Shown here: positions 13,706 to 59,300 of the stretch, in pieces
How positions within the stretch are numbered: the first letter of the stretch is position 1
Layout: the number at the start of each line of letters is the position of its first letter
Source: Chondrosia reniformis
Taxonomy: Eukaryota; Porifera; Demospongiae; Chondrillida; Chondrillidae
DNA length: 64,000 bases
Direction of reading: 5' to 3'
NCBI GenBank assembly: GCA_947172415.1
Contig: OX359189.1
Coordinates: forward strand, 1,882,501 to 1,946,500
Program-made: the position numbers and the translations under genes
Notes under the pieces: model-generated
What the model was told of the DNA's origin: nothing
What the model saw: the letters and a program-made list of their open reading frames with translations, nothing else
Database searches by the model: none

Positions 13706-16534
13706 ATGACAGAGTCCGACTTGTCAAACTTCTTTGAACCATTGTTATGCAGTATCTCTGAGAGTTCCAACATTAGTCACTTTGAAAGTAGACCATTGGC
13801 GGTTATAACAACTGTAAAGGAGAAAAATGCGTCCCAGGACACTGCTCAAACATCAGAGAATGCTACAGTGGCACTTCCGCCTACATCAACCAGTCATTCG
13901 ACCTTCCCGCCCATCGATTCTGCAGCAAACAAACCAGGGTTCGTAACAATTGTAGATGTGAAGAGCCCCGAAGATATGTTCCATAAACCGGAGCATGGCG
14001 AGGATGTCGAAAGAGAGCCTCAAGAAGAAGAAACTGAAAAACCTGATCCTATTACCCATCGAGACCACAGTTACAGTTTGTCCTTCTCCGTCCGGGGAAG
14101 GCCATTGAGAAGATCTAAAGCTTGTGGCGATTGTGAGGGCTGTAAGAGACTGAATTGTAACAAGTGTCGTTTCTGCATGGATAAGCCAAAGAACGGAGGA
14201 CCAAACAGATTGAAGAAGCGCTGCATTTTTAGGATCTGTACTAATATGGTTGTGAGTCAGCCATTTTGTATATTTTAAAAATCTTGCTTTATTCCCTTTA
14301 TTTCTGTTGTTTAGCCTGGCGGTGTTGGAGCTAGAGTAGGAAGCCAGTCCTACTCGCTTTCAAGCCCTGGAGAAGACATCCCTGAAGCTGAAAGCAATGA
14401 GAATCCCCTCTCTCCTCAGGAGGAAGAGAAGAAGGAGGGTACACCTACAAAGAGGACTGCAATAGTGACAGTTGATGATTTGAGCCCCACTGAAAGACCA
14501 AAGAGACAAAAGACTTTGCCAAAGAAGTTTTCCTTTGATACTGCTGAACTGAGAAGAAACATGAGAGGTAAAAGAGGAATATCCAAGGCCAAATCTGAAT
14601 CTGTTATTAGGACACTTAGAAGAAGACCTTTCACTGGTGAAGGTAATTTTTGTTCTATATATCATTAACTGATATCTTGTATTTTATCATTTCTTGATTG
14701 GTTCAACACTTGGCAGATACTTTTGATGTGTTGCGAAATGTCAGTGAAAATGGAGGACACAGTAAGCTGGCTAAACTACGCAAGCAACTCTTGATAGACA
14801 TGGCAGGTGAGACCAGAGGTCAATCACCTTTTCCATCAATACATGTAATTCATTTTTAAATACGATTCACCCTTTAACGTCAAATCCAAAGAAATGTCAA
14901 GAAATTTTGTGTTGAAAGTTTAACACATTGCCAGTACGAGGTCGGAAACCTGCCCCTCAGGTGGGTTTCTTATCTCGCACATCATTTGGATTAAATGCTT
15001 TCTTTTGCTGTGACAATGGCATACTTCTGTATGAGAGCAAAAAATAGCATCTTTGAAAACGGAGAACTCTACAGATATCCCTGATAGATGTCAGGGTAGT
15101 TTGAGGTCTGCATGAACTGAAGGAGTTTAAGAACGAAAAATAAACTAACAGAGAACCTGTGAATTATGATACGATTTTCTAATCATGCTTTGAGATTCCT
15201 TTCAAGAGTTGCAGTATTATCCTTATTTGGAGGCTTATAAAATGGCCGACAAGTATTGACTGATATTACTGTATGTTTTGTGGCTAACAAAGTTAAAAAG
15301 AGAATGTACTCTCTATCATTTGTGTTAAACAGTTTCATGTGATAATGTTTGACTGTAATTCTTTTAAAACAGTGATTGTTTAATTAACTGTAGCTCCAGG
15401 AACTACTTTGAGAAAGAGACGAACATCCTCCATGGAAAACAAGAGGATCCACGTACGCAGCCCTCCACCATATGAGGGTATTCCTGCTGCAGGAACTTTG
15501 ACCCCAGTACCCAAACCAGTCTCCTCAGCTAAATTGAGCACTACACCAACTGCTGATCAGAGTGGAAGCGAAGGTCTTGATGTTCTTGCCAGTGGAGCTG
15601 CAGAGCTGTCCAAGCTACCAAGTGTTTCTACATCAACCAATCTAAAGAGAGTTGGTAGGTAATGTGAACATAGATAAGAAGTTGGATTAGTGTTGCTTTC
15701 CTATTTGGTCTCTAAAGGGCAAGGTACTGCACAAAATCCTAATGGTAGAGAGCCGATTGATCCACGTCTGAGGTTACCTAGAGCTGTGATGTCAGTTGAT
15801 ACGCAGTCACCAACTCAGATAAGAAAACATGGCCCTCACATACCAAGGAAAAAACATATGAAGAATCCCAAGAAGAAGGCAGAAATAGCTCTCCATGCTA
15901 TGAAGTATGGTGTAGCCAGTACCATCCGCCATTATTTCAAAGAAGAAGGTTTAGATTTGAAGGAAAGCACTATTCGTGGATGGAAGAAAGCGTGCTTCTC
16001 CAACAGTAGTCCTCAAGTTGAGAGGACTCTTGCAAGTGATAATAGTTCAGAAAATGAGAACCTGCCCTCAAATGAAAGTGCAAAATCTCCAAGTAAAATG
16101 GGTAAGAATGGTAAATACGTAAATGAATTACTAGATGTAATGTTACAGCTTGTACCAATATTAAGGTCGTATGCATGTAGGTCTACCCGACAACCCTGCA
16201 GTGTGGTCGCCTTCTCATGTACAGCAGTATGTGGCTGGGTGTGGCTTCCCAGAGGTTGCAGCCCAGTTGATGGAGGAGGTAAGCTGAAATCAGTGACTAT
16301 TCCACACTGAAGCACTATCCCTTTGTAGAGTATTCCTATTATATGAGTGGTGTCTATGGTACCATATGTAAGGTTTGTTGCTGTATATAGGAGGTTGATG
16401 GAGAAGCTATGCTGGAACTTACTCCTATAGCTTTGGTACAGTGTTTGAAGATAAAGCTGGGTCCTGCCATAAAAGTGTGCAAGTGCTTTGAGCAGCCCAG
16501 AATTAAGGCTGAAGCAAGCAAGATTAATCCCTAG
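13706..16534 (+). CDS. CXXC zinc finger – HTH-like – SAM domain protein, paralogue 1
   Basis: Seven exons join in phase to give 439 residues: 13,706–14,251, 14,315–14,642, 14,717–14,806, 15,394–15,654, 15,718–16,101, 16,166–16,278 and 16,391–16,534 (TAG). Residues about 131–180 form a CXXC zinc finger with eight cysteines (CGDCEGC at 140–146, CNKCRFC at 151–157, C173, C178) and the variant KNGG for the usual KFGG. This domain normally binds unmethylated CpG DNA. Exon 5 carries a basic stretch and an HTH-like segment (AEIALHAMKYGVASTIRHYF...ESTIRGWKKA), resembling DNA-binding modules of pogo/CENP-B-type transposases. The last two exons encode a SAM domain (VWSPSHVQQYVAGCGFPE ... KLGPAIKVCKCFEQ), close to Polycomb/L3MBT-type SAMs. 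A nuclear chromatin or transcription factor is inferred. The start is the first ATG of the long frame. The exon 7 acceptor could be 3 nt further right. Confidence 0.85.
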
Positions 16535-17159: not shown

Positions 17160-19857
17160 ATGGTAAGCGAGTACGAAGTGGTAGAAATGGCCTCCACGGA
17201 TCTTTCTGAGGTTGTCAAGTCGGTAGGCGACAATTTCGTAAACTTTACAAGTAGACCTTCGGTTATCGTCTCCACTGAGACGAGTAAAAAATCTAGCTGT
17301 GTATTCAAGGACAGTGCGCAAGCAACGCAGAATGGATACACTTTACTATCGCCCCAAACTATTACTACTAGTAGTACGAGAGATATGGCCGGCTTCCCGC
17401 CTATTACCTCTTCGGGTAGCAAATCTTGTTACGTAACTGTTGTGAATGTAAGCGGTAGCGAAGAGATGCTTCGCACACCAGAAGCTAAGAAAACTACAGA
17501 AGAAGACGACAAAGCATTGATGAAAGGAATCCTCACTCATAGCCAACACAACAGCTTTTCTTTGTCAACCCGTAAACGACCGAATAGACGATCCAGAGCT
17601 TGCGGTATTTGTGAAAGTTGTACAAGGCCGAACTGTAACAAGTGTCGCTTCTGCATGGATAAGCCGAAGAATGGAGGGCAAAACAGATTGAAGAAGCGCT
17701 GCATGTATAGGGAATGTACTAATATGTTGGTGAGTTAATTGTCGGCCATTTTCAGTTCTATCGTGCAAAATAGCAAAGAATGGCACAAAGCATTCTCACA
17801 CTCAAACAGTCTAAATGTATATGAGCGGCTTCTCGTTTGTATAGCCCGCTAGAAGGGAGACTGGTGATAATGGTAATGGAAATGTAAGACAATCTGACAA
17901 ACTAGAAAGCTATACATCTGAAAATCTAGCTGAGTGTTTTATAAAGAAGAGACCAAGCTCCAAAAAGAGATTAAAGAGAAAGAAACTGTTGGCAGAAATG
18001 TTTGCTTTTGCCAATTCTCCTCAGTTCAATACTCAGGATAGAAACTTGAGAAAATCCAAATCAGAATCAGCAATAAGGACTTTGAGGAAGAGGCCTTTTG
18101 AAAGTGATGGTAAGAGCATCACCGCCTAATACAGGGTACAGTCTGTCTGGTTGAGCTAAGCGAGTTTGAGTCTAGTGCACTCCACTGTATACTGATAGCC
18201 ATGATGGTCTGTCTGGTGGGATGGTTGAACTAAGCGAGTTTGAGTCTAGTGTACTCCACTGTATACTGATAGGCATGATGGTCTGTCTGGTGGGATGGTT
18301 GAGCTAAGTGAGTTTGAGTCTAGTGCACTCCACTGTATACTGATAGCCATGGTGGTCTGTCTGGTGGGATGGTTGAACTAAGCGAGTTTGAGTCTAGTGC
18401 ACTCCACTGTATACTGATAGCCATGATGGTCTGTCTGGTGGGATGGTTGAACTAAGCGAGTTTGAGTCTAGTGCACTCCACTGTATACTGATAGGCATGA
18501 TGGTCTGTCTGGTGGGATGGTTGAACTAAGCGAGTTTGAGTCTAGTGCACTCCACTGTATACTGATAGGCATGATGGTCTGTCTGGTGGGATGGTTGAAC
18601 TAAGCGAGTTTGAGTCTAGTGCACTCCACTGTATACTGATAGCCATGATGGTCTGTCTGGTGGGATGGAAGCTGTACATGTTAGATAATGTGGATACAGT
18701 TACAGTACAGGTACAGTTATTGCTTCTGATTTGTTAGATGTCCTCCAGGATATTATTGAAGATGGCAGCAATCCCAAGCTGGCCAAACTACGCAAGCAGC
18801 TGTTTATAAATATGGCTGGTGAGACCAATTACTGCGTGTACAAGCAGTCAAATCCACTTTAACCGTTCAAGCAAAAACCTTTTCTATAACTCTAAGTCTG
18901 GCGTATATTCATATTGTATACTGTACTGTGTAGGTACATAAGTCTATGCATAATATTTGCATTCTGTAGCTCCTGGAACTACGTTGGGGAAGAAAGAAAT
19001 GTCCCCCTTGGATAATCAAAGGATCCACGTACGCAGCCCACCACCATATGAGGGTATTCCTGTTACAGGAACTTTGTCCCCAGTACCCCATCCAGTCTCC
19101 TCAGCTAAAGTGGTTACTTCTTCATTGAAAGGGCCAACTGATTCTCAGAGTGGAAGTGAAGCTCTTGATGTTCTTGCAAGCAGAACTGCTGGATGGCCTA
19201 GGCTCCCCAGTAGTCCCACAACAGCCCATATTAGGAAATTGGGTGGGTACCCACATACTTGAACATGCTCAGTAACATATGTTCGCAGTATGTTGTTTAT
19301 CAAATGCTCAGTCTTTAATTTCTGAGCGATCACATGTAGTTCCATTAGTGTTGTAGCTTAGTGGTAGAGCACTGGTGGCCAAACCAGCTGTCCTGGGTAT
19401 GATTTCTAGTAATGGCTGCCTTGGGGGGTTTCCCTCTTCATGATGTTTTATGTGATTGCTTGTGGTTTATTATCACTTTGATATTAAGGTCGTATGCATG
19501 TAGGTCTACCCGACAACCCTGCAGTGTGGTCGCCTTCTCATGTACAGCAGTATGTGGCTGGGTGTGGCTTCCCTGAGGCTGCAGCCCAGTTGATGGAGGA
19601 GGTAAGCTGAAATCAGTGACTATTCCACACTGAAGCACTATCCCTTTGTAGAGTATTCCTATTATATGAGTGGTGTCTATGGTACCATATGTAAGGTTTG
19701 TTGCTGTATATAGGAGGTTGATGGAGAAGCTATGCTGGAACTTACTCCTATAGCTTTGGTACAGTGTTTGAAGATAAAGCTGGGTCCTGCCATAAAAGTG
19801 TGCAAGTGCTTTGAGCAGCTTAAAGTTAAAGTTGAAGCAAGTAAAATAAAACTGTAA
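17160..19857 (+). CDS. CXXC zinc finger – SAM domain protein, paralogue 2 (no HTH exon)
   Basis: Six exons join in phase to 481 residues: 17,160–17,729, 17,845–18,109, 18,738–18,818, 18,970–19,242, 19,489–19,601 and 19,714–19,857 (TAA). Domain order matches the upstream paralogue: CXXC finger (CGICESC, CNKCRFC, KNGG), KSKSESAIRTLRKRPF, NPKLAKLRKQL, IHVRSPPPYEGIP and a SAM domain. The exon that carries the HTH-like segment in paralogue 1 is absent; exon 4 splices in phase straight to the SAM exon, and the intervening intron holds a tRNA-like repeat. Intron 2 contains a 74-bp tandem repeat. The ATG at 17,160 is the first in frame (MVSEYEVVEM); Met at 17,187 is an alternative. The 5' half has diverged strongly from paralogue 1, while the 3' end is nearly identical. 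Confidence 0.83.
18130..18668. repeat. 74-bp tandem repeat (about 7 copies) in intron 2 of CXXC–SAM paralogue 2
   Basis: The unit contains GGTCTGTCTGGTGGGATGG and CTAAGCGAGTTTGAGTCTAG and recurs every 74 bp with 1–3 changes (gcc/ggc, gtgcac/gtgtac). The intron in paralogue 1 lacks it, so it expanded after the gene duplication. Confidence 0.92.
19350..19420 (+). repeat. tRNA-derived SINE-like fragment
   Basis: GTAGCTTAGTGGTAGAGC matches a tRNA D-arm/A-box. It is followed by an anticodon-arm-like hairpin CTGGT-GGCCAA-ACCAG (loop one base short) and a degenerate B-box (GGTATGATTTCT). The acceptor stem is not clear, so it is a decayed tRNA-like or SINE copy rather than a working tRNA. It lies in the intron where paralogue 1 has its HTH exon. 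Confidence 0.55.
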
Positions 19858-30000: not shown

Positions 30001-33000
30001 GTTGTCTAGTGTACAACTATGCACTGTATTAGTAAATAATAAGGACAGAAAGACATACAAATACATATGTCAAATGTACACAAGACAAACTCCAGATCTT
30101 TAACAATGAGTTACTCTAAGATATGTACGTACGTACGTACAAGAATCTGTCTCAACTGTTCACAATACAATTCCTACCACAACAATCCACAAACATGACA
30201 GTGCTTGAATGTGTGTATGAGTGATTGAGTGTGTGAGTGTGGATGCGATAGCCTACCTCAGCAGTTTCAAAAAACTTTTTCATGGCATCCAATCTCTTTG
30301 GTGTTCCCTTGTACACCTCCACTGCCTCTTTTGCCTGCTGCTTCTTCATCTCAAAAAACTTTTCTGTTTATAAAACAGACAAAATAAAAATCTAAATACT
30401 CTACCACTGCAACATACGTACATATATAATACTGTAATTAAAGGCAGGGTCTCATATAGTGGCCGGGGGTCAGCTAGGTCATTCCTAAATGGAAGTTGGG
30501 TCTCGAATAGAGGCTAGGATCTCTCAAATCGACACACTTGGGTCGAGGTGCAAACTGATGGCGACATCTGATCCATTTCTACTGCAGTTGCAATGTCAAA
30601 GTAAAAGTCCCATGGTGCATAATTGACTATAAGGCAGCTAAGGAGACGGGTGTGGATGCCAAAACAATATTTATAGAAGCTAGGCTCAAATCAACCTTCA
30701 GTCTCAGGCAAAATGGTGTTCATGACAATTTATATATGTATCACAGCAGCTAAAGAGGAAGGTGTAGGTTTGACTGTTTCCATGGTTACTCACCCAGAAG
30801 GCTTATCATAGCATCATTGTATGCTTGGTACAGTTTGACTAGGTCCTTGTACATCATTAGGAAGCAGGTGTTGATGACACCATTCACCATTTCTACCACA
30901 TTTAGGTTCATTTCTAGATGGCAGTCAATTAAGTCTCCTATCATGTTTAAACTCCTTATCAATTTCTCCCTATCCATCTTCTGAAAGTCACCAGTTTCAC
31001 TAAAGTCCGTACGTACATAATAGCATTACATACATACATAGTAGTAGCCACATAGAAGGTCATATATTCTCATAAACACATACGTATGTACATACATATG
31101 TACAGATATGTACACTTCAAGGCTTGGTGATCATAATGCAACAATTACGTAGGTACGTACGTACATATTGTTAGTAAAATACATACATACATTGCAGATG
31201 TGATAAGTTTTAATTTCATATCAGTTTAAGATAAAATGTAGGATTACAGCATTAACATTAACATGCATCAGTTTGATGGCTATACGTACATGATTGTATG
31301 AATTGAATTGTCTGATTGTTAGATAAGATTTGTAAAATAACTGCACTTGTTGGCTAGTATAACCAGAAATGCCATCAGCGAGAACTGATAATATACGTAC
31401 ATACAGTATGTAGAAGGAAGGCATTACTGATCATATTGCTGTCGCAGTCACAGAGCACTAGTAAACAAATCCAGTAACCCGAGGCTAAACTGTTTTACAT
31501 ATCTCTTGTACATTCCTCTTAACTACGTATGTAAGTACAGTGGAACCTGTGTCAGCGGTCACCTGAGTTAGGCGGTCGCCTAGTATAAGCCGGTCACTAG
31601 GGGAAGTCCCGAATGAATACGTATTGATGTGTGTGCAGGTTCCACTGTACATAAGTTCAAAATTGACTACTTCAATTACTAGTTGTTCATGCAAACTGAC
31701 CCCTTCTTTGCCTTCATTACGTCTATTGCGAGCTGCCTGTAGGTAGTGAGCACTGATCTGAGATAGCGAGAGTACCTCCTGATGTATAGAGACATATTGT
31801 AGGCTGCAGTTTGGAGAACGGAATACATGTTACTGTATATGTAATAACATGCACATAACATGTAATATAATTATATTATTGCAATTCGTGAGTTACGTAC
31901 GTACGTACGTACGTATGTACATATATGTATTAAAATTACTCATTGCACATACATGCGTACGTAGGTTTAACATGGAGGTTCTGTAGTAATTTATGCCAAG
32001 TATGTAAGTATGACCATACTTATATATGTACGAAAAGGGGAGTTTTTGCACGTAAGCCTGTGCTGGGCTATCATTGCAAATAATAAACACCACTGGATAT
32101 TACGCCAACCAACCAAGTGACAATGGTCTACGGACAATGGTTTTCAGCTACCACACTGATGAGCCCTAAAGAGGGCGAAACAGCTGTCTGTGGTTCATTG
32201 ATGATTTTTTGCCATCATTGGATGACTGGGAGGTCATCACTGGTTGCCACTAAATAGGACTTCGGTCCCCAGCCAAGTAGACCATTGTCACTTGGTTGGT
32301 TGGTGTAATATCCAGTGGTGTTTATTATTTGTTATATACGTATGTACGTATGTACATAAAGACATTTATACGTACATATGCACATTCTCACACCAGACGC
32401 TTAATTACACACTTGTACGTATGTAGTGGCTAAGGGGAGACTCTGGTTCCCATTAAGTGAACTTTGGTTCCACCCATTAGCTCATTATGCTCATCAGTAG
32501 ACATGAGTGGGCGGGGGAAATCCAGAGTCAAGCGATGATGATAATGTCCATAGTCAAACGACTTACCAGGAGAACTAGATTTATCCGTAAAGCTGTCCAG
32601 ATACAGTATATTGGTACTGGAAGCCATACATTGTAGGAATCGCTAATGAAAATGACAAGGGAAAAACTCTGATATACGTACGTATGCAATTAGTTGACAC
32701 ATTCAGACAATAAATTAAAGCAATTATAAATGGTATCAAACTGCAATGGAATGTCATTATAATGAGATCACTTAGAGTAAAAACCTTGCACACACATATC
32801 ACAGCAATAGCATACAATAGCCTGCATTTACGTATGTACATTTAGGGACTAATTACTGTCAATGACTTATGTATACATTCCAGGAAGGCATGAAAAAGGG
32901 AAAAATGTATCAGTTGACGATATTTTCAACAAGACTAATAGCAGAGACTATTTCAATCAGAAAGAACTACCTTATAGTATTAAGACAGGTCTCCTGAAGT

Positions 33001-41100: not shown

Positions 41101-44100
41101 CCAGTTATACGTACACTCCATTTACTAGTATATGGTATAGGTACAGTACACCTCTGTAGTATATACGTAGATACCCCAGACACCATCTCCACTCCATATG
41201 GTGCCCACTAAAGGAGTTCTACTGTGTACAGTCAGTGAAGGGCCTCATTAACATTGAACATTCATGGACACCAAATTGTCGCAGCATGTACACTTTGTTG
41301 ACATTTAAATATGTCTATCCAGTGGCTCAGCAGTTTAATGTAAACATCACGTAAACACTAGTGCACCTCAGGAGAACGGAAATCAAACTACATCACAGCC
41401 ACACATAAATATCACAATTTCACTAAATCACCCAATAAGTACGTATAAGTGCTGCAAGCAGCAACAAGATCACTAAATGTGGTAAGCACTAAAGTCCCAA
41501 CAAACCTTAAAGTCATAAAAATATATTTGCCAATAATATAAGCCTTAAGGAACTTCCTACTACAGAATACATATACACTATATAAATGATCTACATATCT
41601 ACACATGCATATCCACCAATGGAAAGTGAATAATTAGGAAAGTTATCACATCTGCCTACTTATAAATCTTACACTTACTTGCACAAGTTTAGAAGATAGT
41701 TGTAGCTGAAGATTAGCACTTCCTTTGGAACATTGTTGGGCTCCAGTAAGTACGGAATTACCAGATGACAGTACACTGCAGGGAAGAGACACAAGAGGGT
41801 AGATCTACACTCATGTGCCCTGAACATGTGCCCCGGAGCATGTGCCTGGGAGCATGTGCCCGGAACATGTGCCCCGGAACATGTGCCCCGGAACATGTGC
41901 CCCGGAACATGTGCCCCTGAGCATGTGCCCCGGAGCATGTGCCCCGGAGCATGTGCCCCGGAGCATGTGCCCCGGAACATGTGCCCCGGGAGCATGTGCC
42001 CCGGAACATGTGCCCGGGAGCATGTGCCCTGAACAACAACTAAATTCTTGTTGACTGACACTCAAAGCCTTGTGTTAGCATGTGCACATTGTCACACTCG
42101 GGAAAAGGGAGGGCAGCCTTCAACAGACACAACACTTCACGGGGTCGGCTGATGCAAGACTGAAGCATTGCCTTCAACTAACAGAAAAGACAAGAATTTC
42201 CAAAAGTCATTTTTCATCTTATGGCATTCAGAGGTAACTGGGAAAGACTAATAACCTATCTAAGATGGACGCACATACCTGTCTAAGATGGACACACATA
42301 CCTGTCTAAGATGGACACACATACCTGTCTAAGATGGACACACATACCTGTCTAAGATGGACACACATACCTGTCTAAGATGGACACACATACCTGTCTA
42401 AGATGGACACACATACCTGACTTTTAGGAACCTCAATTACAGCTGGTCTGAAGGACTGAAGTGTTAAGATCAAAATCTGGTAGGTTTCTGGATAGCCGCC
42501 TGTGGTCAGCGAGGATGAACAGTCAGCTACATACTCAATTACGTAATACATGATAACATGGCCGTCCACATGCATCCACTAGTATATCCACTGTTCTCAT
42601 AAAAGTGGATCAGTACATATATGGTAAAGTTTTAGCCTACTAACAGCAGTTTTCATAGTGAATTCAGGTTTTGAGAGATTTTCAGTAGGCAAGATGGATT
42701 GTGAATAAGATACATAGATCTAATTGTGACAAAATACTTGCTACCTATATACTGTACACTTTACAAGAACGTGGGTTTTCTAGCCAAACTTAAACGGGAT
42801 ACTTTTGCATTACAAGCTCGATACCTTCATCGTTTGTTAAACTCGGTACAATGTCTCATCGATACCCCAGAAACACCTTTTCCGCTTAGACTTATGCTAA
42901 TGATTAAAGACATTATTAAAGCACGCGCTTCAGCCAGCCTTCCCAAACACCCAACGAAAACGACAAGTCCAGAAGGGTTTCTTAAAATCGTGTTTCATAA
43001 TAAAGGTGTAGAAAAAATAGGCCTCTCAGGTATCTTAAACCAAAAGTTAGTGTTAGAAACTGTCCCACCCTTTATACAAAACAGAGAGCCCCCATGTGTA
43101 GTATATAAGTATACCCAACCAATAGGACCTCAAATCTTTAACTTTTCACAAACCTCTAAGTCAGATGTTTTTAGAAAACCAGAACCATGTGAGTGTCACA
43201 AGTCCCCCTTCATTTACAAGCCCCTAGGCCATGTTTTAACAGGTGATCTACGTATTGTTAGTAACCCAAAACTTAGAAAACTTCTTAAGAAAGGACCAAA
43301 ATTTAGAGAACCTAATAACTTTAATTGGGTAACTGCTTTAAAAATGTGTAAGGAAGGTCTTAGAAAATATAAGATTACCTAAGCTACATAAGAACCCTTA
43401 CAGCTACAGATTCATAACCGCCTCTCACAAATGTACTACCAAACCCCTTTCTAGATTTCTAAATTCGGCACTCAGACTAATTCTCAAACATTTTAGAGAA
43501 TACTGCCTAGGTATATATAGGAATACTGGTGTTAATGCCTTTTGGATAGTAGAAAACTCACTAGAAGTCTTAGATAGTCTTAGGTCTATACCCACTAGAA
43601 AAGCCCAGCTAGCTAGTTTTGATTTTTCTACATTATATACAGCGATCCCCCATAACCTACTTAAAGATAAGATTACTAACCTAATTTATAGTGCCTATAC
43701 CTGTAGAAAGTCCCAATATATAGAAGTCTGTCAGGATAAAGCCTTTTGGTCTAACAATGTCTCCAATAAAGCAGTCACAGCTGTTCATTTAGTAGAGCTC
43801 TTTAATTACCTTATTGACAACATTTATGTATGTGTAGACGGTTCTGTATTTAAGCAATGTGTAGGTATCCCTATGGGTACTGACTGTGCCCCTGTAGTTG
43901 CTAATCTTTTTCTGTTTGCCTATGAGTATGAGTTTATGAAAGGACTACTTAAGGATAACATCACCCTAGCTATTAAATTTTCCAATACTTATAGGTATAT
44001 TGATGACCTTTTATGTATTAACAACAAGGATTTTGAACTGTTGATTAGTGATATTTACCCCAAAGAACTTATTCTTAAAAAGACAAATACCAGCCCTAAA

Positions 44101-46945
44101 AAATCCCCCTTTTTAGACTTAGATATAACCATTACTAACAATCAATTTATCACTAAAGTATATGATAAACGAGAGGACTTTAACTTTGATATAGTAAATT
44201 TCCCCCATTTAGATAGTAATATTCCTAATACCCCAGCCTATGGTGTCTTTATTTCACAACTAATTAGGTATTCTAGAATATGTAGTGACTTCTCCAGTTT
44301 TCAGGCTAAAAGTTTGCAGTTATGCAGTAGGCTTATTAAGCAGGGTTACAAATACTTTAAGCTAAAATCAACCTTTAAAACCTTCCTATCCCGGCAGCCT
44401 CTAGTTAGAATCAAATATAAGCAAAAAGTAGCTAGTATGCTTAAGGACTGTCTTGTGTTACCCCATATTGTGTTACCCCACCTCCAAAGAAATGTTACTA
44501 CTAGAAGACCTAAAGGTAGACTTACGTAATATGTCCTACTTTTGTCTATAGTTATGCTGAGTCTGTTTTACCTGTACAAGCAAGTTTACTAATAGATTTA
44601 TAATTAATTCATAAAAGTTAATTGGACCTACATTCCTTTCATAAAATTAAATTTCATCATGTGTCTTAGTTAACACCTTATTTAACTTTTGGCGCCAAAA
44701 TAGTGTATATAAGGCCCCTAGATTTAGCATAGAGAGCCAAGGATTCACAGAAGATCAAGATAAAGAAAAAGACAAAGACTCCCAGGATCACTGATGAAGG
44801 GTGGAATTCCCAGAAACGGCTGTCTGACCCAGTGGAGAAGAAGATGAAAGAAGGGAAAAGAAGGAAGAAAAGACTACTGTATCTTCATCTAAAGCTCTCT
44901 TTAGGTTTAGTTCCCCTATAGGCTCTTTTTACAGAATAGGCATATAACATGTAGGAAAATGGTATCTTAGATTTTTCATGTTCCTATGTGTTCAAAATGG
45001 TCTCCAATCTCACCTTTATGAGCCTCAGTTTCTAGTGCGTCCACACAGCTGGCATAGAAGGTGTCGAGTGATTCTGGCTGACATTTCTCATAGCACCAGC
45101 GCAAGGCGTCTGAAACACTCTTTGGAATGTTCTCAGCCAAAAATAACGGTGTCACTGGAGAAGTAGAACAATCATTCTCAAGTAGTCTAGTATCTCTTCT
45201 GGTACTGATCAGCTGGAGATGGGAGATGTACGTCTTAACTGAACTAAATAAGCCACTCTGCCCGTGGCCATGTGTGTAGGAAATAGGAAGGGAGTACATA
45301 TATCAGACAACCAGTACTTGGCTAAGAGGGGACCACTGCTCCGGGATAAGATCACACATTAGCCATCTCTACCAGTCTACCATCCCCACCCCCCCACCAC
45401 GGTACACATAGCTTGAATGGACACCAACATCAGGCTCCATTGTCATGGCAACAAAATTAAGAATTTAGAAATAGCAATACTGATTAGCAATCTGCTGGCC
45501 CAGTGGAGGAGAAGAAGAAGAAGGAGAAAAATTCTTGTATCCTCATCCAAAGCTCTCACTAGGTTTAGTTCCCTATAGACCTTTTACTCTGAAGCAAATG
45601 TAGCGTGTTGATAACAGTGTGTTAGATTATTCATTTACATTATAAAAAGTCTATTGAATTACCTTCTTTCATAGCAGGTTCTTCATCAGGCGTGAGATGG
45701 CTCTTAAGGAATTGAGCGAGATCTCTCAAAATGCTCTAAATTAGAGACGAAAGAGACACCATATCAGAAGGTGCACTAGAGTGTACTGGAACCACTTACA
45801 GACTGCTCACTGTAACGAGCCTGAGCCAGGCAGAAGCAATCCTTAATTTGGACCCCATCCAACTAGACAATGTGAATAGAGAGGCCACTTGAACACTATT
45901 CATGTGTTTAAATACATCCATTTATGATAGTACATGAATTAGCTAAGACACACTTTTCCCTGTAAAAAGATCTTTCTCTAAATCTTTAGGACTAATAATA
46001 CCGGGGTATGTCAATATGGATGCCAAAGACTTACAAACAATCAAGAAGACAGATATTTCCAGGGTCACTAATGAAGGGTGGAATTACCAGAAACAGATGT
46101 CTGGCCCAGTGGAGAAGAAGAAAAGTAGAAGGAGAAAGCTCTTGTATCCTCATCCAAAGCTCTCACTAGTATTAGTTCCCTATAGGCCCTATATTCTAAA
46201 TTAGATATACATAGTATGTTGGATATTCATATAGTGTATGTACATGAATGACCTTCATACTGTAGGTACATTATTCTATAGTTGATGTAGTATGTTGAAA
46301 ACATTGTGTGTTGTTCATTGTACCTCATTGAGAGCATCAGTGAGGTAGTGAGAGCTCCTCCTGTGTCCTTTGGGGTCCTGTTTCTTCCCTTTAGACTGCT
46401 TCTGACTGTGCTTAACTGTAGCTGCTGAAGACTGCTGTTCAGAAGTTCTCTTTTTGCCTCTTGACACATTCAGAGAACTGAAACCGGTATCATCTTCAGG
46501 AACTGGATCTAGTCACGTGATGAGGTGGTATTAGCTCAGTGGAGTACAGTCTTACTATTTAAACTAGACATGCTATATGTATATGATAGCTGATTGCATG
46601 TAAATAATGTGCTCTAACATGTGTTGTTGTAAATAATGCGTGTTGCTGTACTAAATTTATTTTTTCCAAATCTAAGCATCGGCAAGCTTATAAGAGGAGC
46701 GTAGGACACCCTTATCTGTAAGTTTGGGACTAGCCAGTACTTATAGAGCAAAAAGTGACTTTATAGGTGAATACTCTAAAGAAAAGAGTGTTCCTCAAAA
46801 TTGAATGGTTACATGTCTTCAGACACATACCAGCAGGCTCTAAAACAGAGGGTTGGAATCCTTGGGCTCTCTTCCTCTTCTTAGCAGGGTCCTTACGAGC
46901 TGTTTTACCATCCTTTCCAACGGTCTGCCAGTAGTCTTCAGCCAT
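38190..46945 (-). CDS. TMEM214: TMEM214-like ER membrane protein
   Basis: The exon ending at 46,945 starts MAEDYWQTVGKDGKTARKDP. It is followed by basic exons near 46.4 kb, LDGVQIKDCFCLAQARYSEQ (45.8 kb), SILRDLAQFLKSHLTPDEEP (45.7 kb) and IPKSVSDALRWCYEKCQPES (45.1 kb). The order and spacing follow TMEM214 (W.VV...K, ALDVADL, WLKDLASYL, YPYSLV..LR..I). Later exons near 42.5, 42.1, 41.7, 41.0, 40.4 and 39.9 kb continue an all-helical protein. The exon at about 39,256–39,560 has VDLCADSLNYLLKRC and a membrane segment (MVKMVILVLFIILVDIC), as in TMEM214 before its first TM helix. Exons at 38.6–38.7 and 38.2–38.3 kb are placed here with low confidence. The human protein sits in the ER and is linked to stress-induced apoptosis. 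A retroelement occupies the 42.6–45.0 kb intron. Confidence 0.68.
39028..39235 (+). mobile_element. PLE terminal fragment with truncated hammerhead
   Basis: Matches 44,750–44,960 (AGATCAAAAAGAAGACAAAA, CCAGGGTCACTAATGAAGGG, then the CTCATC...AGGTGTACTTCCCTATA tail). The hammerhead core reads CUAAUGA at 39,065 and GAAAC at 39,088, but the GUC and 3' stem I are deleted. It sits in a TMEM214 intron. Confidence 0.75.
40050..40205. repeat. 46-bp minisatellite, about 3.5 copies
   Basis: CACAGGTCAGTACACCACAT plus GTCCACATCCATCC, separated by C-rich tracts of variable length. Coding frames on both strands are by-products. Confidence 0.9.
41818..42030. repeat. 14–15-bp minisatellite, about 15 copies
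   Basis: Units of GGAACATGTGCCCC or GGAGCATGTGCCCC, each containing a CATG or ACATGT palindrome. Open frames exist on both strands in several registers, typical of a short repeat and not of a gene. Confidence 0.92.
42250..42418. repeat. 23-bp tandem repeat, 7 copies
   Basis: Unit ACCTGTCTAAGATGGACACA plus CAT. The last copy directly abuts the splice donor of the TMEM214 exon near 42.42–42.55 kb; each unit contains acatacct, the complement of an aggtatgt-type donor. Confidence 0.9.
44687..44714 (+). promoter_or_regulatory. Putative PLE promoter: palindromic E2F-like site plus TATA box
   Basis: TTTTGGCGCCAAAA (44,687–44,700) is a perfect palindrome and matches the E2F consensus. TATATAAGG follows 6 bp later (44,706). 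The same pair is kept in inverted orientation in the copy at 49,500–49,527. Promoter function is inference. Confidence 0.5.
44785..44830 (+). ncRNA. Hammerhead ribozyme in PLE terminus
   Basis: Stem I GGAUCA/UGACCC (one A·C mismatch), CUGAUGA at 44,791–44,797, stem II GGG-UGGAAUU-CCC, GAAA at 44,813–44,816, stem III AC-GGCU-GU, and cleavage triplet GUC at 44,822–44,824. All core bases fit. Hammerheads are known in PLE terminal repeats. Confidence 0.82.
45490..45605 (+). mobile_element. PLE terminal fragment (hammerhead 3' half only)
   Basis: CTGCTGGCCCAGTGGAGGAG followed by CTCATCCAAAGCTCTCACTA matches the region after the hammerhead cleavage site in the other copies. The CUGAUGA part is missing. 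Confidence 0.65.
46020..46205 (+). mobile_element. PLE terminal fragment with mutated hammerhead
   Basis: The hammerhead at 46,062–46,107 has stem I GGGUCA/UGGCCC (one G·U), the core CUAAUGA (conserved G changed to A), GAAAC and GUC. The compensated stem with a broken core suggests an inherited copy that has lost activity. The downstream tail matches the other fragments. Confidence 0.75.
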
Positions 46946-49244: not shown

Positions 49245-50165
49245 TATGAAAAATCTAAGATACCATTTTCCTACATGCTATGCCTATTCTGTAAAAGAGC
49301 CTATAGGGGAACTAAACCTGAAGAGAGCTTTGGATGAAGATACAGGAGTCTTTTCTTCCTTCTTTTCCCTTCCGTTTCATCTTTTTCTCCACTGGATCAG
49401 ACAGCCGTTTCTGGGAATTCCACCCTTCATCAGTGATCCTGGGAGTCTTTGTCTTTTTCTTTATCTTGATCTTCTGTGAATCCTTGGCTCTCTATGGGGC
49501 CTTATATACACTATTTTGGCGCCAAAATCATCTTATATTTTCTAAGATCTTCCTTACACATTTAAAGCAGTTACCCAGTTAAAGTTATGTAGGTTCTCTA
49601 AATTTTGGTCCTTTTTTTAAGAAGTTTTCTAAGTTTTGGGTTACTAACAATATGTAGGTCACCTGTTAAAACATGGCCTAGGGGCTTGTAAATGAAGGGG
49701 GACTTGTGACACTCACATGGTTCTGGTTTTCTAAAAACATCTCACTTAGAGGCTTGTGAAAAGCTAAAGATTTGAGGTCCTATCGGTTGGGTATACTTAT
49801 ATAGCTACACATGGGGGGCTCTTTGTTTTGTATAAAGGGTGGGACAGTTTCTTCAGTTTGTCAACACTACTGTCCGTCGATTTTAGATTGTAGCGCCGAT
49901 GTCGTCCTTTATGAGATAAGCGATTAAAAAGGTTCCATATGATGATTTCTTTCTTAAGTTTCGAAATATTGCCAACGCCTTTAATGTTATCGTTAAGTCC
50001 ATATGGGTAAATAGAGCAGAGTTCCTTGTACCAGAACGCGCTTCTCTCAGTAGTCTGAGGCTAGTAGAATTAGGTGTCTCGGGTATCTTTTCTATGGGCA
50101 TAATCAAGGCATCATCAAAACTATGGTTATCAGAATTAAAGTGATTGTAGAGATACAGTGGCTTA
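49245..50165 (-). mobile_element. Inverted, truncated copy of the same PLE
   Basis: Positions 49,250–49,530 match 44,690–44,965 in reverse, with the hammerhead, TATA box and E2F-like palindrome. Positions about 49,590–49,870 match the complement of 43,060–43,345 of the RT (for example TAGGGGCTTGTAAATGAAGG), with stops. The catalytic part of the RT is missing. The tail order is as in a pLTR joined to the 5' part of an element. Confidence 0.8.
49394..49439 (-). ncRNA. Hammerhead ribozyme in the inverted PLE copy
   Basis: Minus strand: stem I GGAUCA/UGAUCC with six perfect pairs, CUGAUGA (49,427–49,433), stem II GGG/CCC, GAAAC (49,407–49,411), loop GGCU and cleavage triplet GUC (49,400–49,402). 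It repairs the single stem I mismatch seen at 44,785. Confidence 0.84.
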
Positions 50166-50317
50166 AAACCTTTGGTACTAGTCCTATGGTTGTATGGTTA
50201 TATATATGTATTTTTACAAATATGTAATGATTGTGTGTATATACATATGTACGTATATATATGTATACGTATATATCAACATATATACATTGTATATGAT
50301 ATATACAAATTTCTTAC

Positions 50318-56300: not shown

Positions 56301-59300
56301 ATGCATGTACATACATTAAAGTGTAAATAAATGCCAACCAGTTCTGGTTAAAGGGCACAGGACTATACCTGGACACGTATAAACCATCAGCCGCCAGGTT
56401 CATAGCCCGACTGCCTGGGCACATTAAGCCCTCCCCACTTAAGGCTACCAGGCCGCACTTCCCAAACAGTCACATACGTACACGAGCACCATATCCATAA
56501 TGTAATTGATGAATATTTTGCTTACAATGAAAACATCCTCAAGTCAATCATGATGCATGATACATACATGTCTCTAACAGATCTCAAAAAACTAAATTGT
56601 TTCTTGAATTTCACGAACAATATGCCAAAAACACATAAAGCATTAAGAACATTGAAAGATTCTGAGAAACTTATCATGAAAGACATTATAAAGCTTGTAA
56701 ACAGATATATATACATCATAATCTTCAAAAAAGTAAAATCTTACCAAGCCAATGATTTTCAGGTTCTGTAGAGGTTGAGAGTCCAGGAATTTTTTTAATA
56801 TCTGCAGATCTTCTTCATTCTGAATGCCTATGTCAAATAAAATTGTTGTAGTGATGCATTATTAACAGCCTCCAATAATATACGTAAATATACACAAGGG
56901 TCTTGCATGGCTGTCATACAGCAATGTACTGACGTACTGTAGAATAGCATTTGCAGCTGTATAACCTAATGTCTCTAAAAAGGATCAGGAATCATTCAAA
57001 GAAGCACAACAGATCACAAACTGCATCTAAGAGTAATTAAATTTCCACAAAATGCATGCCTCTTTAAATGCCTCCTTTAAGGACCCTCTAGTATTTTAGA
57101 TCCGCATTTACACCATATAACATCTTTCAATGGAAACTTTTCAGGTTACTTCAGAAACAAGTACAGTATATATAATTTAACACACCTGCTAGACTAACTG
57201 CAATGGTATCCAAGCAATTGACTTGGCTTGAAATCGATTCAAGGAATTTGATTAAGGCTTGTGAGGATGATGGATATACAGTTTTTAATTTTTTTATGTT
57301 GTTTCTGCAATTTTCTAAGCACATGAGAAACCTTAAAGCCTCAAGGTGTATTGGATTTTGTGTGCCGATTACAATTTCAACATCATTCTTTTTGAATATC
57401 ATTTTCTGGCATAACTCTTTATCCTGGCTCTCAGCTAGTGAAACTGCAATGTCCATTAATGGACTATAAAGAAAAAATCTGTAATTCTTGGCTTCAAGTT
57501 GAAATTGCTCACGGATTTCTTCTTGCAACTGTTCATTTTCTTTCAGACCTCCAAGGCCACAGAAAAACTGGAACACTTGAGGTAAGCCCACTCCTTTGCT
57601 GCTGGATCCAACTGTGATTTTTTCTCTCCAGAATTTAACCTGTTCATCCACTGAAAGGCATCTCCAACCAAGGGCTGTGAAGAAATCTTGCAGTATTTCA
57701 TGTAGAAATCGAGCTGGTCTGCAATCATGACCATCCCTGGTTTCAACACTTTTACCTTTCTTCAGAAGACCAAAATGCTCTCCCTGATCAGGTTTAAAGA
57801 CAGGTGCTGCATCAGGCTCAGCCATTTTCAGTGCTAGTGAGCAGAGATACTTGAATTGGTTTTCTCCAAGCGATTTGCAATTTTCCTGGAAATTGTGTTC
57901 TTCAGTGTCCTCACCTAAATTTTCTAAATACAGATTTCTAAGTCGACCAACAGAATACCCGATTAACTCAGTTGCTGTTTTAGGTGGTGGTCCTGCAGTT
58001 CCCTCCTCAGTTATGTGGCATAACATTGACAATAAAAGAGGATTGTGACCAAAGGACTGAAAAATTGAATAAAACGACTCTGGGACTTCCCTTTTCTGCC
58101 ATTTTTGGATAAATGCATCTCTCTGTTGTGTTGTAAAACCAACTACTTGAAGAGAACGATTGTAGTAACGACTAAATGATCTAGCCGTGTTAGGTCGAGA
58201 GGTAACTATAAATGAGGCTTTTGTAAGAGCTTTGCACTGCAGGATTTGAGCCAAAAAGGAGCCTTTCTTGATATTCTCGCATGCATCAAAAATGAATAGG
58301 AAGCCTTCTCCGAACGTAGATTCAATCATTTCGCTTAGATTATTCAGATCATCATCACTAATATCAAATGAAAATGATAAAGCACTGATCAATGATTTTA
58401 TGCGACTCTTCCTATTCTGCTCTTTGGTGGTCTCCTGAGATACATTTTGCAAATCAATTGGCAAAATTAATTTATACTCTTCAGCAAATTGTCCTTCTGA
58501 GAAGGACTGGCATAGCTTTCTAGTAAGAGTAGACTTTCCTATTCCTGGCTCTCCTTCAATCAGAATACGTGCAGGCTTGTAGTTCAGAATATTTAATAGA
58601 GCTACTGGCTTGGGGTCTTCCTGGACTTCCTTGGGATCCTCTTGGAATTCAGAAGATTGATCCTGATTAAATTCTTTCAAGCAGGTGTCTATGTATTCTG
58701 CTTCAGGATAGAATTCATTCTCTGCAACACTTTCAGGCTTAAAGACAACTTTTAGCCTTTCTAGGAAGGCCTACAATATAAACATTTATGTAAAATGATC
58801 AGTAAAACAGATTATACATATATTTACGTGTACATATAATGATAATGACTAAATTAAAAATCTTGTAGAGGAACAACATTATTGATACATAAATTATATA
58901 TATAATATAGTAATATCTGCTAATTCTGTCTGTCCATGTAACACATACATATTGCATATAAAGGAATCCCTTAAAGTATATTCAGGTTTGCACTATATGG
59001 TCTTGTATCCAAACCATTTGCTATTTTTAGCTTTCTACCAAAATTAAGGCCTAAATAGTCATCCTAAAGTTTGAGCATCTTGTCAATTTGCAAATATAGA
59101 GTAAAAAGCCTTAACTCTTGACCAAAACCAAAGCCTTTCTAGAATTCATTAACTGCAACACTTTCAGGCTCTAAGACACATTTTAGCCTTTCTAGGCCTA
59201 CAACATAAGCATTATCAGATCAGATTATACATAGATATATAATAATTATAACTAAATTAGAAATCTCCAATTCAAGGTGAAGAAACAACTTGAGTTTGCA

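What the first reader, a model, noticed from the sequence alone, without database searches (positions are those of the whole stretch)
32078..32330. Small foldback element that carries a canonical hammerhead ribozyme between 54-bp inverted repeats
The arms match at 53 of 54 positions, and the ribozyme between them keeps every core base, a perfect 6-bp stem I and a perfect stem II. Hammerheads are known in PLEs, retrozymes and satellite DNAs. A non-coding element with long terminal inverted repeats and a central ribozyme looks more like a DNA-transposon MITE that has captured a hammerhead, or a new type of ribozyme-bearing mobile element. The name and mechanism are inference.
Basis: partly seen in the sequence, partly recalled or inferred. 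Interest (0 to 1): 0.82.

Follow-up and report, generated by a model that had tools for sequence, protein, structure and literature searches.

The report
Sponge retrozyme inserted as foldback dimer
The foldback with a self-cutting RNA is not a DNA transposon but one damaged copy of a small non-coding jumping RNA element of a sponge, and the way its copies sit in the genome points to Penelope-type machinery as what moves it.

Summary
In detail: arms match at 54 of 55 positions; Rfam Hammerhead_1 matches 32150-32194, 39.4 bits, cut-off 34. Contig lengths fit the kidney sponge Chondrosia reniformis.

The MITE reading fails. Copies are ~353-nt units that also occur head to tail. A second family (B) has the same layout. 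Insertions carry target duplications: 20 of 21 flank pairs score 8 or more, against 6% of 420 mismatched pairs. Many units lie as inverted dimers with both ribozymes outward (12 outward, 0 inward, first 100 of 241 places). One outer end stops at site N; the other runs on by a 44-bp (A) or ~50-bp (B) tail: 19 of 20 assigned dimers have exactly one tail.

Inverted repeats, one-sided tail and short duplications are the published signature of Penelope-like retrotransposons. So this is an animal retrozyme inserted by target-primed reverse transcription, most likely by Penelope machinery from both target strands. RNA was not tested and no helper element identified. The window copy is a damaged dimer whose ribozyme lacks stem Ib. 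New variant of a known kind.

The parts
32020..32032 (.). left target-site duplication, TTATATATGTACG (imperfect, in ACGT-rich DNA)
   Evidence: ungapped score 8 against the right flank; 6% of mismatched pairs reach 8, so weak for this copy alone
32033..32076 (-). 44-bp tail: sequence past site N, read into the start of the next unit (AGCCCAGCACAGGCT hairpin, ends CCCCTTTT)
   Evidence: identical to the start of the L039 unit over 45 bases; by my table (made) 9 of 9 family-A dimers have it on one side only
32077..32131 (-). left arm: last 55 nt of a unit, opposite strand (5'-truncated copy)
   Evidence: unit positions 652-706
32132..32149 (.). inner junction; remnant of the sequence upstream of the ribozyme, with the stem Ib strand deleted
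32150..32194 (+). type I hammerhead ribozyme, predicted cleavage after C32188
32195..32276 (+). body of the right-hand unit, including the GGACTTCGGTCC hairpin
32277..32331 (+). right arm: 3' end of the + unit, ending at site N (TTTATTATTTG) without tail
32332..32348 (.). right target-site duplication, TTATATACGTATGTACG
32425..32546 (+). untailed 3' fragment of a second retrozyme family (B), 85% identical over 124 columns
42757..44981 (+). 5'-truncated, frame-broken copy of Penelope-like element P1; its non-coding 3' repeat (44591-44981) holds a hammerhead-like core at 44791 and ends where 11 of 40 scored P1 copies end (20 of 40 within 7 bases)
   Evidence: Pfam finds nothing in its two ORF pieces
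49246..50193 (-). second, rearranged P1 copy with a hammerhead-like core at 49433

Best explanation
The element is one insertion of an animal (non-LTR) retrozyme of the sponge Chondrosia reniformis: a non-coding ~353-nt RNA unit with a type I hammerhead. Inferred cycle: tandem copies are transcribed; the hammerhead trims the RNA, and uncut multimers or re-ligated circles serve as template; a Penelope-type endonuclease/reverse transcriptase cuts both target strands and starts cDNA synthesis from both 3' ends, inside the RNA, at one of two start sites 44 nt apart (N, or T at the tail end). The two cDNAs are then joined in the middle. The product is a head-to-head inverted dimer with both 3' ends outward, one tail, and a short target duplication. 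The 'foldback' of the finding is such a dimer, with a 55-nt left arm plus tail and a 183-nt right arm. Shown here: the family, the unit, tandem and inverted arrangements, two recurrent 3' ends, one tail per assigned dimer, target duplications, cDNAs reading across the hammerhead cut site. Inferred: transcription, cleavage, circles, the identity of the enzyme, and two-sided priming.
For: Outward-facing pairs: 12 outward, 0 inward, 9 tandem among neighbouring cores under 2 kb in the first 100 of 241 places (two-sided p = 0.0005). Direct tandems at 281-363 bp, one of four units. Target duplications: 20 of 21 flank pairs score >=8 against 6% of 420 mismatched pairs, means 11.5 and 4.5 (L036 and L037 look like one duplicated locus). 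One tail per dimer: 19 of 20 in my table; about 2e-6 for 19 of 19 if ends were independent with the tail fraction seen among 30 family-A ends. Family B shares no significant sequence with A outside the hammerhead yet has the same N/T layout. Arms longer than one unit (L039 about 408 nt, L043 409, L044 410) imply a multimeric or circular template. 26 of 30 family-A arms that I counted read across the cleavage site u208 (cut site). Between A and B three hammerhead pairs change on both sides; covariation 0.254 against 0.153 in shuffles, 0 of 500 reaching it. Unit RNA folds tightly, z = -3.6. Published Penelope structure: inverted pLTR, 8-10 bp target duplications, 31-bp tail optional on one of the inverted pLTRs (passages); a purified Penelope-like protein cuts and extends both strands and starts internally at two sites that define the tail. 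A Penelope-like family, P1, with 40 scored copies 99-100% identical over their match, is present.
Against: No RNA data: circles, self-cleavage and expression are untested. No Penelope-like element sharing the retrozyme 3' end or tail was found; P1 has no significant match to A or B, its own tail could not be seen (score only 40 of some 1,650-1,700 candidates), Rfam finds no hammerhead in the P1 loci and Pfam no reverse transcriptase in the pieces tried. The window copy's own duplication is weak (score 8) and L041 reaches only 7. Exceptions to the neat rule: L028's untailed end stops about 22 nt before N, L045's 17 nt before N (counted as untailed), and the tail of the family-B dimer in L044 is about 20 nt short. 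In one search the number of pairs with double changes (3) is no more than in shuffles (313 of 500 reach it) and the further pair types (8) are fewer than the shuffled mean (11.1; 500 of 500 reach 8); the covariation rests on one split between two families. Arms of one dimer are not consistently each other's closest relatives, so a single template per insertion is not shown. In vitro the Anolis protein showed no difference in start site between strands, whereas one tail per dimer suggests that the strands differ. Some Adineta Penelope copies have inverted pLTRs but no duplication, so the published signature itself varies.
Confidence: 0.82

Rival explanations
1. A DNA-transposon MITE that captured a hammerhead: cut-and-paste by a transposase recognising the 54-bp inverted repeats.
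For: Long inverted repeats around a non-coding centre and many copies.
Against: Copies share no pair of fixed termini; arms run from 55 to ~410 nt; single units and direct tandems exist; matched duplications vary from 7 to 18 bp; one end of the assigned dimers is longer by a tail.
Confidence: 0.03
2. A retrozyme, but moved by a LINE-type machinery with twin priming.
For: Target-primed insertion gives variable duplications and 5' truncation.
Against: Twin priming inverts part of one copy (recalled), whereas here both arms carry the same 3' end; recurrent N and T ends and the one-sided tail match the Penelope descriptions. I did not search this genome for LINEs.
Confidence: 0.08
3. The head-to-head dimers arise by self-priming into a hairpin, as proposed for Penelope elements of Adineta on an antisense template (passage), not by priming from both target strands. 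This rival keeps the retrozyme and the Penelope machinery and so overlaps with the best explanation.
For: Inverted repeats joined head to head; in L044 and L046 the partner arm is the closest relative in both directions.
Against: A hairpin copy should have equal ends, yet the two ends differ by the tail, arms differ in length and inner junctions differ, and partner arms are not consistently the closest.
Confidence: 0.15
4. The dimers formed after insertion by inversion or recombination between tandem copies.
For: Tandem arrays exist.
Against: Duplications flank whole dimers and orientation is 12 outward to 0 inward; random inversion would give both.
Confidence: 0.03

Closest known systems
Animal non-LTR retrozymes (Cervera and de la Pena 2020, PMC7229834; abstract, passages and Discussion read)
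   Same: Non-coding units of 150-450 bp with a type I hammerhead, GC under 50%, tandem copies, target duplications longer than 4 bp, well-folded unit RNA.
   Different: Here many insertions are inverted dimers with one-sided tails; the word 'inverted' occurs 0 times in that paper's main text. circRNA is shown there, untested here. Host is a sponge; 'sponge' and 'Porifera' occur 0 times there.
Penelope-like elements (Arkhipova 2013, PMC3846280, passages read; Frangieh 2024, PMC11167929, main text section read)
   Same: Inverted terminal units, short target duplications, optional 30-40 bp tail on one inverted unit, internal start at two sites, hammerhead in the repeat.
   Different: No protein gene in the unit; tail 44 bp (A) or ~50 bp (B); no significant sequence match to the Penelope-like family P1 of this genome.
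Plant LTR retrozymes (described in passages of PMC7229834 and PMC7761336)
   Same: Hammerhead-bearing non-autonomous retroelements.
   Different: Plants: type III hammerhead, LTRs with primer-binding site, 4-bp duplications. Here a type I hammerhead, a short unit and longer duplications; I did not search for a primer-binding site.

Membership tests
Animal non-LTR retrozyme | type I hammerhead with intact core and stems | tested here: met
   (39.4 bits); 44 of 65 loose matches in the fetched loci have intact core, complete stem II and stem I of 5 or more pairs (the 65 include unrelated look-alikes)
Animal non-LTR retrozyme | non-coding unit of 150-450 bp, GC below 50% | tested here: met
   353 and 354 nt, GC 0.459 and 0.449, longest ATG frame 59 and 40 codons
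Animal non-LTR retrozyme | direct tandem copies | tested here: met
   9 neighbouring pairs 281-363 bp apart among the first 100 of 241 places
Animal non-LTR retrozyme | target duplications longer than 4 bp | tested here: met
   (7-18 bp matched stretches); weak for the window copy itself
Animal non-LTR retrozyme | expressed as circular RNA after self-cleavage | not testable with these tools
   no RNA reads at hand
Penelope-type insertion product | oppositely oriented terminal units, 3' ends outward | tested here: met
   12 outward, 0 inward
[quoted passage not shown]
   19 of 20 dimers by my table; the tail is somewhat longer, 44 bp in A and ~50 bp in B
Penelope-type insertion product | shares its 3' end with an autonomous Penelope-like element of the same genome | tested here: inconclusive
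   no significant match to P1; other Penelope-like families not readable in full
Penelope-like element (autonomous) | reverse transcriptase plus GIY-YIG endonuclease gene | tested here: not met
   unit is non-coding
DNA-transposon MITE | same two termini in all copies and fixed-length target duplication | tested here: not met

The most novel reading that the evidence does not exclude
Every two-armed retrozyme insertion records a pair of priming events by a Penelope-type protein dimer, one at start site N on one target strand and one at start site T on the other. Animal retrozymes would then be Penelope parasites whose foldback copies reveal strand-specific use of the two start sites, which the published in vitro assay did not see.
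Probability: 0.4. Interest if true: 0.75.

Novelty: new variant of a known kind. Interest (0 to 1): 0.6.

Why it matters
The papers read here leave open what moves animal retrozymes: the 2020 review says their repeats show no motif that identifies the helper (section read), and the 2020 NAR paper names Penelope-like elements as a strong candidate from co-occurrence, shared type I hammerheads and tandem copies (Discussion). Insertion anatomy is more direct evidence. It can be read from an assembly, and this genome carries near-identical copies of a Penelope-like family to test as helper.

Tried and rejected
MITE reading: rejected. P1 as helper: matches to A or B are only 9-14 nt, none significant; P1's tail could not be seen because the tables score 40 candidates: all 40 run to within one base of the query's far end, 20 of 40 end at 241-247 of a 250-base query. 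Rfam on the five P1/GIY-YIG loci: no hammerhead at E <= 5, so those cores are called hammerhead-like only. Pfam on the two ORF pieces of P1 in the window: nothing. That P1 is Penelope-like rests on GIY-YIG (22.7 bits, cut-off 22.6), the hammerhead-like core and a YIDD-type stretch seen (motif recalled). First hammerhead regex was mis-spaced and found nothing usable; repeated correctly. Arm-to-arm similarity as a test for one template: not decisive. Folding energy does not single out the window copy: forcing the hammerhead costs 5.8 kcal/mol there and 5.2 in the three other copies folded. A third family, about 78% identical to A, could not be read. P1's N-terminal endonuclease recalls the Naiad clade of Penelope-like elements; this is recalled, and the paper that I tried is not held (search gave 0).

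Rows dropped: of 36 distinct 45-mers, 29 went into the alignment; of the other 7, six are look-alikes and one (L047) looks like a decayed family-B hammerhead. The 20 dimers are those in which I could assign both outer ends by hand; partial inverted pieces in L009, L011, L018, L021, L025, L027, an older copy in L050 and a rearranged one in L051 were left out. One search holds 21 rows because L036 and L037, which look like one duplicated locus, both stand there. The 30 arms leave out the second copies or short pieces in L044, L047, L050 and L051.

Full report
What is there. The reported structure is real. The arms at 32077-32131 and 32277-32331 match at 54 of 55 positions, and Rfam Hammerhead_1 matches 32150-32194 with 39.4 bits against a cut-off of 34. 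The core is complete, stems I and II are perfect and cleavage is predicted after C32188. The window is position 1,882,501-1,946,500 of the first of 15 contigs of a 117.4-Mb assembly. The 11 contig lengths that I saw agree with the chromosome table of the kidney sponge Chondrosia reniformis, odChoReni1.1 (PMC12181767, passages); no sequence was compared to confirm the species.

The element is larger and belongs to a family. A whole-genome search gave 109 matches with 40 of 709 candidates scored. Most of the longer matches cover only the right 182 bases, and many come as inverted pairs spanning about 300-690 bp. I read 20 copies with about 4-kb flanks besides the window. The unit, read on the ribozyme strand, is 353 nt and runs CAATGATAGCC...hammerhead...GTTTATTATTTG. 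Units follow one another head to tail: L039 holds about 408 continuous nt, more than one unit. Family B, with a 354-nt unit, resembles A significantly only in the hammerhead but has the same plan. The genome holds 241 exact hammerhead cores of the searched pattern against 4 for the reversed pattern.

Ends. Copies mostly end on their 3' side at one of two places: site N, after TTTATTATTTG, or site T, 44 nt further, after CCCCTTTT; in family B the corresponding ends lie about 50 nt apart, at a GAT run and after CCCCTATTTTTT. Of the 20 two-armed insertions that I could assign by hand (9 of family A, 11 of family B), 19 have exactly one tailed end by my table. The exception, L028, also has one tail, but its other end stops about 22 nt before N. 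L045 is counted as untailed although it stops 17 nt short of N, and the tail of the family-B dimer in L044 is about 20 nt short. None of the 20 has two tails. With the tail fraction seen among 30 family-A ends (0.53), 19 of 19 would have a chance near 2e-6 if ends were independent; family A alone, 9 of 9, 0.002.

Target duplications. Flanks of 21 dimer rows (20 loci, one of them apparently duplicated) were compared with 420 mismatched pairs: 20 of 21 reach score 8, against 6%; mean 11.5 against 4.5; matched stretches are 7-18 bp, mostly 10-15. Examples are CAGTTGGATTATCTG at L043 and AAATGCCAAAAC at L044. The window copy has a weaker one (TTATATATGTA / TTATATACGTA, score 8) inside ACGT-rich DNA, and L041 reaches only 7.

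Orientation. Among the first 100 of 241 listed cores, neighbours under 2 kb apart form 12 outward, 0 inward and 9 tandem pairs. Independent insertions or later inversions would give inward pairs as well.

Ribozyme. Families A and B differ at three hammerhead pairs by changes on both sides; 97.3% of cells pair and the covariation score exceeds all 500 shuffles, while sliding the partners destroys it. Against this, the number of doubly changed pairs (3) is matched by 313 of 500 shuffles, and the changes separate two families, so they are few events. Full units also have a stem Ib and an internal loop in stem I; the window copy lost the 5' strand of this through a deletion, the only one of the 25 family-A hammerheads printed to lose the whole segment. 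Its minimum-energy fold lacks stems I and II of the hammerhead, which the three other copies folded do form; but the cost of forcing the hammerhead is similar, 5.8 against 5.2 kcal/mol. I therefore expect it to be slower than its relatives, which is inference. A 353-nt unit folds with z = -3.6.

Template. Of 30 arms that I counted, 26 read across the cleavage site at u208 and none begins exactly there (L046's right arm begins about 6 nt before). So the templates were uncut multimers or re-ligated circles. Four arms begin at or within 2 nt of the same place, u299 (left arms of the window, L041 and L057; right arm of L039), near the foot of a hairpin region containing CUUCGG; a reverse-transcriptase stop is a guess.

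Mechanism. Inverted terminal units, a 31-bp tail optionally on one of them and an 8-10 bp duplication are described as the typical Penelope structure, with some copies lacking the duplication (PMC3846280, passages). A purified Penelope-like protein cuts and extends both target strands and starts internally at two sites that delimit the tail, and RNA with hammerhead mutations still inserts (PMC11167929, main text section). The retrozyme copies show the same kind of ends. The simplest account is that Penelope-type machinery inserts retrozyme RNA from both target strands. The steps of transcription, cleavage, circularisation and two-sided priming are inferred.

Helper. GIY-YIG matches number 150, of 382 candidates. 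In family P1, 40 scored copies are 99-100% identical (1,701 candidates). P1 has a hammerhead-like core upstream of its gene and the endonuclease near the start of the frame that I read (GIY-YIG 22.7 bits, cut-off 22.6, residues 102-135 of 460). Two broken P1 copies lie 10-18 kb from the finding. P1 shares no significant sequence with A or B, so the helper remains unknown.

Novelty. The text library gave 2 papers for hammerhead ribozyme + terminal inverted repeats + transposon, 6 for Penelope-like elements + hammerhead + inverted, 14 for retrozyme + Penelope (listing) and 0 for hammerhead ribozyme + Porifera. In what I read, animal retrozymes are described as tandem repeats, and Penelope-like elements as a strong candidate helper. 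I found no description of retrozymes as inverted dimers with one-sided tails; most of the listed papers I did not open, and papers outside the library may hold one. Verdict: new variant of a known kind, an animal retrozyme with a Penelope-type insertion signature.

Noticed in passing
window 31539-31653: Short element with 18-bp inverted ends around CAGTGGAACCTG...CAGGTTCCACTG, flanked by TA: looks like a small DNA-transposon MITE (label recalled; repeat pair I4).
   Followed up: no
window 21904 (+) and 22110 (-): Two minimal hammerhead-like cores (CTGATGAAGACCC...GGTTGAAATGTTC and CTGAAGAAGACCC...GGTCGAAACATC), like those beside the GIY-YIG matches in L060 and L062.
   Followed up: no
G000:C13:4179008-4179208, C11:3075664-3077410 and others: A third family, 77-78% identical to the tail and unit start of family A: nine full rows, eight of them with the same score, so possibly young; absent from the (capped) hammerhead list. 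Could not be read.
   Followed up: partly
unit position 299 (L039 unit); window 32131: Four family-A arms begin at or within 2 nt of the same base, GTAGACC, 55 nt from site N: a recurrent cDNA end of unknown cause.
   Followed up: partly
L036 and L037: Two family-B dimers with the same target duplication in opposite orientation, inside ACTAGTACATACA-type repeats: apparently a segmental duplication carrying a retrozyme; flanks not aligned.
   Followed up: no
window 13706-14278 and 17160-17738; 57151-58680: Two ORFs with CXXC zinc fingers and one with a NACHT domain.
   Followed up: no
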